From assembly GCA_023957245.1 (NCBI GenBank), contig JAMLHJ010000002.1:186001-250000 (forward strand): a stretch of DNA of 64,000 nt, written 5' to 3'. The notes under the pieces were generated by a model. It was given only the letters and a program-made list of their open reading frames with translations. It was not told the DNA's origin and did no database searches. How positions within the stretch are numbered: the first letter of the stretch is position 1; the number at the start of each line of letters is the position of its first letter. The DNA is from Chitinophagales bacterium (GTDB lineage: Bacteria; Bacteroidota; Bacteroidia; Chitinophagales; JADIYW01). The translations under genes and the position numbers were made by a program. Positions 1,457 to 6,868 of the stretch are shown piece by piece.

Positions 1457-1678
1457 ATGAAAAAAGTATTTTATTCTTTCGTAGCAGCTGCAATGTTTGC
1501 AGGTGTTGTTGCTTGTGGACAAACTGAAGAAGCTGCTCCTGCAGAGGAAGTAGCAGTTGAAGAAACTGTAGAAGCTCCTGTTGAAGAAGCTGCTCCTGCT
1601 GAAGCTGCTCCTGTTGAAGCTGCTCCTGCTGAAGCTGCTCCTGCTGCTCCTGCTGCTCCTGCTGCTCCTGCTCAATAA
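1457..1678 (+). CDS. Short Ala/Pro/Glu-repeat lipoprotein
   Basis: A 73-residue protein of unknown function. Residues 1-19 form a signal peptide (MKK, then a hydrophobic stretch) ending in the lipobox GVVAC, with Cys20 as the predicted lipidated residue. The rest (about residues 22-73) is low complexity: Glu-Ala-Ala-Pro units first, then Ala-Ala-Pro units. The DNA is a tandem array of gctgctcct/gctgaa triplets, prone to slippage. It has its own consensus promoter upstream and a hairpin terminator downstream, so it looks like a separately transcribed gene. A flexible, acidic surface-anchored peptide is the likely form; any binding role is a guess. Confidence 0.75.
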   Translation: MKKVFYSFVAAAMFAGVVACGQTEEAAPAEEVAVEETVEAPVEEAAPAEAAPVEAAPAEAAPAAPAAPAAPAQ

Positions 1679-5979: not shown

Positions 5980-6014
5980 GGGTCTAGAAGTGAATTACTT
6001 CAGACCTTTTTTTA
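5980..6014 (+). terminator. Rho-independent terminator after thrC
   Basis: GGTCT (5981-5985) pairs with AGACC (6001 region), with an inner AAGT/ACTT stem and an AT loop, followed by seven Ts. A clear intrinsic terminator about 25 bases after the thrC stop. Confidence 0.8.
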
Positions 6015-6173
6015 TTTAGATAGCATAATGAGAGCATATTTTGATTGTTTTTATACTCTTTTCACTAATATGTTCTGTAGTTTGTTAAATAAATTTTAAA
6101 ATGCATACTCTAGGTTTGGTTTTAAGTGTATTTAGTGTTAAGTTTATTTAAATTTTAAAACCATTTTAATACC

Positions 6174-6812
6174 ATGAAAAAATTATTTTATTCCTTTTTC
6201 CTACTGTTCTCAGTAGTGACATTTACAACTTCATGTCAAAAAGACGCAAAACAAGTTGTTCAAGAATCTTTAGGCGCTAGATTAGCTAAAGATGCTGAAT
6301 TTTCTAAAATGATGAATGCTACCGTAGGTATGGCAACCTCATTTACTGGTCAACAAATTTCTGCTGAAGATGGAAAATTAGCAATGGAAATTTTAGCTAA
6401 AGGTAATAAGGCTAATGCATCTGAATTGGCTTTCTTGAAAAGAACATTTGGAGCTAACTTTGAAGCATTTGGAGCTAATTTGAATGAGTATTTAGTGGCT
6501 GTAGGAAACTTAGAGAATACTTATAAATTGTCTGCTTTAACTCAACCTGAATTGGACGCTGCTATTCAAGGTGCTGTTGAATTAAACCCAGCATTGAAAC
6601 AAAAATTGACTGCTGTAGTTTCTGCTAATGGAAAAAGTGCAGGTGCTGATATCTGTAACTTAGTTGTTAACCTTGCTTCATTATTTGGAGGTGGTGCATT
6701 ATGTACTGCAATCGGAGTTTCTACAATTCCTGTTGTTGGAGGAGTATTATGTACTGCATTGTTAGCAGTAGCTAAAGGTATTTTAGGTGGTCTTTGTAAT
6801 TTGATTCCATAA
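6174..6812 (+). CDS. Lipoprotein with regularly spaced cysteines in a glycine-rich hydrophobic tail
   Basis: A 212-residue protein of unknown function. Residues 1-20 are a signal peptide with a possible lipobox (TTSC, Cys21). Residues about 25-155 are a soluble, mostly helical domain rich in Ala, Asn and Leu. Residues about 158-212 are a hydrophobic, Gly-rich tail with cysteines at 161, 177, 193 and 208, almost evenly spaced (16, 16, 15); the local motifs CNL, LCTA, LCTA and LCNL make the tail nearly symmetric. Such tails resemble membrane-active peptides or glycine-zipper segments, but I cannot assign a family. A TAGGTTTG element at 6111-6118 may drive it, although its nearest upstream TTG is 26 bases away. 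A strong terminator follows, so it is probably monocistronic. Confidence 0.7.
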   Translation: MKKLFYSFFLLFSVVTFTTSCQKDAKQVVQESLGARLAKDAEFSKMMNATVGMATSFTGQQISAEDGKLAMEILAKGNKANASELAFLKRTFGANFEAFGANLNEYLVAVGNLENTYKLSALTQPELDAAIQGAVELNPALKQKLTAVVSANGKSAGADICNLVVNLASLFGGGALCTAIGVSTIPVVGGVLCTALLAVAKGILGGLCNLIP

Positions 6813-6837
6813 TACTGAATTTAATATTGTAATATAA

Positions 6838-6868
6838 GGGGTCTGCTTTGGCAGACCTTTTTTTATTT
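6838..6868 (+). terminator. Rho-independent terminator after the cysteine-tail lipoprotein
   Basis: GGTCTGC pairs with GCAGACC around a four-base loop and is followed by seven Ts, about 25 bases after the stop codon. Strong intrinsic terminator. Confidence 0.85.

What the first reader, a model, noticed from the sequence alone, without database searches (positions are those of the whole stretch)
6174..6812. Lipoprotein with a symmetric, evenly spaced cysteine tail like a membrane-active peptide
Seen: the last 55 residues are hydrophobic and glycine-rich, with cysteines at 161, 177, 193 and 208 (intervals 16, 16, 15) set in the motifs CNL, LCTA, LCTA, LCNL. Earlier residues have no cysteine except the possible lipobox Cys21. 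Known: some bacteriocins and toxin-like peptides have hydrophobic Gly-rich, disulfide-bonded C-terminal segments. Inference: the tail may be a pore-forming or antibacterial module tethered to the cell surface, or released by cleavage. No immunity gene is obvious next to it.
Basis: partly seen in the sequence, partly recalled or inferred. Interest (0 to 1): 0.6.

Follow-up and report, generated by a model that had tools for sequence, protein, structure and literature searches.

The report
Lipoprotein with a disulfide-stapled hairpin tail
This is a bacterial cell-envelope lipoprotein whose oily, cysteine-paired tail looks like a small saposin-like membrane-binding hairpin, and more distant relatives carry a similar tail gene next to a tiny membrane protein in the way toxins sit next to immunity proteins; nothing about its function has been tested.

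Summary
Observation confirmed: 212-aa lipoprotein, lipobox Cys21, tail Cys 161/177/193/208, tail almost uncharged. Not chance: across nine relatives in the same family (Chitinophagales) the tail is the best-conserved part (56% mean identity against 31% for the helical domain) and under the strongest purifying selection (dN/dS 0.03-0.08 against 0.13-0.55). Outside the window's genus all relatives have six tail Cys; the window's genus has lost the first and last together. Spacing is palindromic, as in a helical hairpin with nested C1-C6, C2-C5, C3-C4 bridges; AlphaFold gives a two-helix hairpin. Saposins and SP-B recur, weakly, among the nearest solved folds. The helical domain is homologous to Chitinophagaceae lipoproteins bearing other six-Cys tails; seven of seven of those have a 69-91 aa 2-3-TM gene directly downstream (background about 1 in 144). 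The window and close relatives lack that gene; some distant relatives lack the tail. Best reading: surface lipoprotein presenting a saposin-like membrane-active hairpin, perhaps antibacterial; a non-toxic lipid-binding or envelope role is nearly as likely. No database family matches.

The parts
6174..6236 (+). Signal peptide (residues 1-20) and lipobox ending in Cys21 (FTTSC), followed by QKDAK
   Evidence: Sequence; conserved SC(Q/N/S)K start in relatives
6237..6623 (+). Helical domain, residues 22-150, fast-evolving, homologous to domains of Chitinophagaceae lipoproteins
   Evidence: AlphaFold pLDDT about 70-88 over residues 31-140, all helical; hhalign to the L051 family 94.6%, E 7e-8, 0 of 150 shuffles; dN/dS 0.13-0.55
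6642..6809 (+). Cysteine tail, residues 157-212: hydrophobic Gly-rich predicted helical hairpin
   Evidence: Invariant Cys 161/177/193/208 in nine relatives; dN/dS 0.03-0.08; hairpin model of the homologous L005 tail, pLDDT 73.5
6654..6656 (+). Cys161, inferred partner of Cys208 (C2-C5 of the six-Cys ladder)
   Evidence: Palindromic spacing; pairing is inference
6702..6704 (+). Cys177, inferred partner of Cys193 (C3-C4)
   Evidence: Palindromic spacing; pairing is inference
6750..6752 (+). Cys193, inferred partner of Cys177
   Evidence: As above
6795..6797 (+). Cys208, inferred partner of Cys161
   Evidence: As above
6836..6861 (+). Intrinsic terminator after the gene, so it is not cotranscribed with smpB
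   Evidence: 11-pair stem plus T run
5981..6016 (+). Terminator-like hairpin after thrC (GGTCT A GAAGT - GAATT - ACTTC AGACC, then T run), so the gene appears monocistronic
   Evidence: Read directly from the sequence; not listed by the scan, which allows no bulge

Best explanation
A lipid-anchored, probably outer-membrane and surface-displayed lipoprotein whose fast-evolving helical domain (residues 22-150) carries a C-terminal disulfide-stapled hydrophobic helical hairpin. The hairpin works like a miniature saposin-like or bacteriocin-like membrane-inserting peptide: two helices are held antiparallel by nested disulfides (C161-C208 and C177-C193 here, plus an outer third bridge in relatives), and the uncharged Gly-rich helices insert into lipid, either while tethered or after proteolytic release. 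In related Chitinophagaceae loci the same architecture is encoded together with a 2-3-TM small protein, most simply a cognate immunity protein, so the ancestral system is most likely an antagonistic peptide; the window's branch has lost or never had the partner. Shown: anatomy, family, conservation, and the partner gene in cousins. Inferred: the disulfides, membrane insertion, surface location and antagonism.
For: Six-Cys palindromic ladder in relatives, centred on one turn, with joint absence of the outer pair in the window's genus; three different tails all palindromic: gaps 5-15-15-14-4, 6-14-12-14-6 and 3-10-12-10-3, each P about 0.001-0.015 under random placement; two-helix hairpin model; saposin A, saposin C and SP-B in 7 of 16 nearest PDB entries by VIA-align, best Z 5.8; tail under strongest purifying selection; helical domain homologous to partner-linked Chitinophagaceae lipoproteins; partner gene in 7 of 7 of those against about 1 in 144 background; presence/absence at a syntenic site in one genus, and a different genomic context in a congener, as for an accessory trait. 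A proteolytically activated Bacteroidales lipoprotein toxin with a small downstream immunity gene has precedent: BcpT/BcpI (PMC9308784). A halocin C8-type precursor releasing a Cys-rich C-terminal peptide has precedent too (PMC12893001).
Against: No partner gene next to any f1 member and none found elsewhere in those genomes at convincing scores (best E 0.004, no tailed lipoprotein beside it). Tail conservation is the opposite of arms-race diversification. The gene is single-copy and monocistronic in the window, with no linked protease or exporter, and no match in plasmid or phage collections. Saposin fold scores are below the level that excludes a generic helical hairpin, and Foldseek itself gave no E <= 0.001 match. 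Full-length model confidence over the tail is low.
Confidence: 0.42

Rival explanations
1. A non-toxic envelope lipoprotein: the stapled hairpin is a lipid-binding or lipid-extracting saposin-like domain, or a second membrane anchor, serving outer-membrane maintenance or surface structure.
For: Strong purifying selection on the tail, no partner gene in the window's family, single copy, presence in all three species of the window's genus; saposins and SP-B are themselves mainly lipid-handling proteins; the tail is far more hydrophobic (GRAVY 1.58, two charged residues in 54) than an ordinary soluble domain.
Against: Absent from two complete congeners with a clean syntenic site, so not core; does not explain the conserved small membrane partner of the homologous Chitinophagaceae proteins.
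Confidence: 0.35
2. The hairpin is a transmembrane hairpin that stays in the inner membrane, the protein acting as a two-point tethered envelope or signalling component; in Chitinophagaceae it pairs with the small TM protein as a complex rather than toxin-immunity.
For: Hydropathy up to 2.0 over 19 residues; 2-3-TM partner encoded next door in cousins; both helices long enough to cross a bilayer in the model.
Against: Cysteine ladders with up to ten charged residues in the L051-type tails fit an oxidised extracytoplasmic domain better than a TM hairpin; a lipobox implies export.
Confidence: 0.15
3. Halocin C8-like: a member of the TIGR04449 bacteriocin domain family with in-cis immunity from the N-terminal domain.
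For: Same order of parts (exported N-domain, then Cys-rich hydrophobic C-terminal peptide) and a similar stretch, GGALCTAIGVSTIPVVGGVLC against GGFICGLLGITIPVAGLSC.
Against: No TIGR04449 or PF22862 match; profile similarity reached by 15 of 200 Cys-preserving shuffles; 10 Cys against 4-6.
Confidence: 0.05

Closest known systems
Saposins, SP-B and saposin-like peptides (SAPLIPs such as NK-lysin)
   Same: Six Cys in nested, palindromic order in relatives; helical hairpin halves; lipid- or membrane-directed; nearest solved folds by VIA-align.
   Different: Shorter (about 60 residues), almost uncharged, only two long helices predicted, no Pfam match, window member has four Cys; attached to a lipoprotein.
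Halocin C8 precursors (TIGR04449 and PF22862)
   Same: Exported N-domain followed by a hydrophobic Cys-rich C-terminal peptide.
   Different: Ten Cys, haloarchaea, different signal peptide; no significant sequence similarity.
BcpT/BcpI of Phocaeicola (PMC9308784)
   Same: Signal-peptidase-II lipoprotein; in cousins a small gene directly downstream in the immunity position.
   Different: BcpT is 499 aa with three Cys and BcpI is a 57-aa lipoprotein, not a TM protein; no homology seen.
[quoted passage not shown]
   Same: Small hydrophobic helical bundles that disrupt membranes.
   Different: Those have no cysteines and no lipoprotein domain.

Membership tests
Saposin-like proteins (SapB type) | Six conserved Cys forming three nested disulfides | tested here: inconclusive
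   Six Cys with palindromic spacing in all tailed relatives outside the window's genus; only four in the window. Bond pattern inferred, not measured.
Saposin-like proteins (SapB type) | Match to a SapB Pfam profile | tested here: not met
   No SapB model among hits for P0001 and relatives.
Saposin-like proteins (SapB type) | Four- to five-helix two-leaf fold | tested here: inconclusive
   Two-helix hairpin model, pLDDT 73.5; saposin A Z 5.8, rmsd 4.5 over 63 residues, below Z 8; Foldseek E > 5 for everything.
Halocin C8-like domain (TIGR04449) | Score above the curated cut-off of 24 bits | tested here: not met
   No match in own genome at E <= 10 or in relatives; a true halocin C8-like protein scores 46.7 bits.
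Halocin C8-like domain (TIGR04449) | Ten Cys and Hac8_like_N domain (PF22862) | tested here: not met
   4-6 tail Cys; no PF22862 match, although the control L042 matches at 1e-44.
Bacterial lipoprotein (signal peptidase II) | Signal peptide with lipobox Cys | tested here: met
   MKK..., FTTSC at 17-21, Cys kept at that place in all complete relatives.
Surface-exposed Bacteroidetes lipoprotein (LES) | C-X-K-(D/E)2 after the lipid Cys (PMC5080379, defined in Capnocytophaga) | tested here: inconclusive
   Window has CQKDAK: K at +3 and D at +4, but A at +5; relatives CQKEAK, CQKDST, CQKTTE.
Toxin with cognate immunity gene | Small immunity-type gene directly downstream | tested here: not met
   Absent in the window and f1 relatives; present in 7 of 7 Chitinophagaceae relatives with Cys tails.
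Toxin with cognate immunity gene | Growth inhibition and protection | not testable with these tools
   Needs an experiment.

The most novel reading that the evidence does not exclude
A previously undescribed family of Chitinophagales antibacterial surface lipoproteins: a shared helical carrier domain bears one of several palindromic six-cysteine, saposin-like membrane-inserting hairpins, each normally paired with a small 2-3-TM immunity protein; the window's branch is a derived, partner-free form with a simplified two-disulfide staple.
Probability: 0.3. Interest if true: 0.72.

Novelty: new variant of a known kind. Interest (0 to 1): 0.5.

Why it matters
No Pfam, NCBIfam or PADLOC family covers it. 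If the tail is membrane-active it would add a disulfide-stapled, saposin-like hairpin to the short list of Bacteroidota surface-lipoprotein weapons, together with a candidate immunity family that can be tested at once. If it is not toxic, it would be a bacterial saposin-like lipid-binding module on a lipoprotein, which would also be unusual. The joint loss of the outer Cys pair gives a natural test of nested disulfide pairing.

Tried and rejected
Pfam and NCBIfam for P0001 and relatives: nothing above any cut-off; the Cbp1, PG1828, BSAP5b and similar hits are signal-peptide noise far under their cut-offs. PADLOC: nothing. Halocin C8 homology: attractive by eye, rejected by Cys-preserving shuffles, 15 of 200. 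PDB sequence search of the tail: one hit to a PsbY transmembrane stretch (E 6e-5, 0 stretches passing on their own) and FliR, read as hydrophobic-helix matches. Full-length fold search: best Z 4.0, unrelated folds. Tail search in 395 Bacteroidota genomes: own genome plus one antisense artefact, L041. A7 (L023-type) in 296 further genomes: no real hit. Plasmids and phages: none. Partner profile in f1 genomes: weak hits only; the best one (L099) has no tailed lipoprotein beside it. Direct comparison of f1 tails with L023-type tails: no similarity beyond the Cys (67 of 100 shuffles); with L051-type tails marginal (2 of 150). VKOR in own genome: sub-threshold, uninformative. Literature: no paper found on such a family.

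Full report
Observation. The last 56 residues hold 10 Gly, 7 Ala and just two charged residues. The gene stands alone: thrC lies upstream and smpB downstream (identified by eye from the translations), an intrinsic terminator follows it at 6836-6861, and a bulged terminator-like hairpin after thrC is visible at 5981-6016.

Relatives. A protein search of 119 genomes found the gene in 9, all in the window's own family f1; a profile search of 396 genomes of the order found the same set, one more fragment at a contig end (G011), and weak lipoprotein hits. Two named relatives are MAGs of Chitinophagales bacteria, ACE_NR_BACT6 and ACE_NR_BACT5. The gene is single-copy in its genome. In the alignment the four tail Cys are invariant. 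The tail is 56% identical on average against 31% for the helical domain. Between the window and its nearest relative the tail has dN/dS 0.03 and the helical domain 0.13; against the third member of the genus 0.08 and 0.35 (synonymous distances are high in the more distant comparisons, so these ratios are rough).

Cysteine ladder. All relatives outside the window's genus have six tail Cys: C-x5-C-x15-C-x10 to 15-C-x14-C-x4-C, ending on the last residue. The three members of the window's genus lack the first and the sixth, and keep the inner four. This is most simply one event, so it is a hint, not a statistic, that the two outer Cys pair with each other. The spacing is palindromic: in L005 the pairs 10/68, 16/63 and 32/48 of the tail construct have midpoints 39, 39.5 and 40, and AlphaFold of the tail alone gives two helices, 11-38 and 41-65, with the turn at that midpoint (mean pLDDT 73.5). 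In the window the midpoints are 184.5 and 185, at the Ile-Pro of STIPVV. Random placement of six Cys gives such symmetry in about 1% of cases.

Fold. The full-length model (mean pLDDT 65; helical domain about 70-88; tail 37-64) has no convincing PDB match. For the tail-alone model Foldseek gave no E <= 0.001. The VIA-align second look at 29 chains listed 16 entries; seven of them are saposin A, saposin C or SP-B (best saposin A 4ddj, Z 5.8, rmsd 4.5 over 63 residues), beside unrelated TM and ferritin-like hairpins at similar Z. I count this as consistent with, not proof of, a saposin-like topology.

Wider family. Weak hits in Chitinophagaceae led to lipoproteins with the same layout and other tails: L023 and L048 with C-x3-C-x10-C-x12-C... 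(L023 exactly 3-10-12-10-3; L048 with an extra Cys), and L051, L085, L086, L087 with C-x6-C-x14-C-x12-C-x14-C-x6-C, plus the variant L067. The helical domain of the window's family matches that of the L051 family by profile comparison at 94.6% probability, E 7e-8, with 0 of 150 column shuffles reaching the score, and matches tail-less lipoproteins L020, L049, L050 at 78%, E 1.8e-5, 0 of 100; the tail-less group matches the L023 group at 95%. The tails themselves compare only marginally (2 of 150 Cys-preserving shuffles for the L051 type; no signal for the L023 type). So the carrier domain is shared, and the tails are either very divergent or convergent on the same palindromic plan.

Partner gene. 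In all seven Chitinophagaceae loci with a Cys tail a same-strand ORF of 69-91 aa with two or three predicted TM segments starts directly downstream (L077 8520-8795, L078 2479-2742 minus, L079 6730-6984 minus, and the equivalents at L067, L085, L086, L087). Among 146 other large ORFs in the window and the fetched neighbourhoods the same criterion was met three times, two of them being members of this set. Partners of L023 and L048 are clearly homologous (37% identity); the others are at most weakly similar to each other. No such gene lies beside the window gene or its f1 relatives, the tail-less relatives have a convergent RDD-type gene instead, and a partner profile finds nothing convincing in nine f1 genomes.

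Distribution. In genus g3 the gene sits between a short conserved gene next to aconitase and a MacB-like permease in G004 and G010, and beside the same permease in G007 and the same upstream gene in G011; in G006 and G008 the same site is present without it, and in G009 it lies elsewhere, beside a probable aspartyl-tRNA synthetase gene, while the permease site lacks it. So it is dispensable and changes place, as accessory functions do.

Interpretation. What it works like: a lipid-anchored carrier with a disulfide-stapled hydrophobic hairpin that would be expected to bind or enter membranes. Whether that is used against other bacteria is open. For antagonism: the partner gene in homologous loci, accessory distribution, and precedents in BcpT/BcpI (PMC9308784) and halocin C8 (named in PMC12893001). 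Against: no partner in the window's branch, and a tail conserved far better than the rest. A lipid-handling role is therefore nearly as probable. Membership: not filed as a saposin (no SapB match, fold inconclusive, four Cys in the window) nor as a halocin C8 domain (cut-off, Cys number and N-domain all not met; 15 of 200 shuffles).

Noticed in passing
L077 8520-8795, L078 2479-2742, L079 6730-6984, L085 2156-2398, L086 520-774, and equivalents in L067 and L087: An undescribed small 2-3-TM protein gene directly downstream of every Chitinophagaceae Cys-tailed lipoprotein found, a candidate immunity family.
   Followed up: partly
L020, L049, L050: Tail-less lipoproteins made of the helical domain alone, each with a convergent RDD-type membrane protein gene immediately downstream.
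   Followed up: partly
window 1457-1678: A 73-aa small lipoprotein that is almost entirely Ala/Pro/Glu repeats (AAPAE, APVEAAPAE), with long ORFs on overlapping frames.
   Followed up: no
L070 3416-3655: A 79-aa two-TM ORF convergent to the window gene's homologue in G002; no homologue beside the other members.
   Followed up: partly
L061 1501-2019: A Chitinophagaceae lipoprotein with a different Cys-rich C-terminus (eight Cys including CC pairs), weak hit to the same profile.
   Followed up: no
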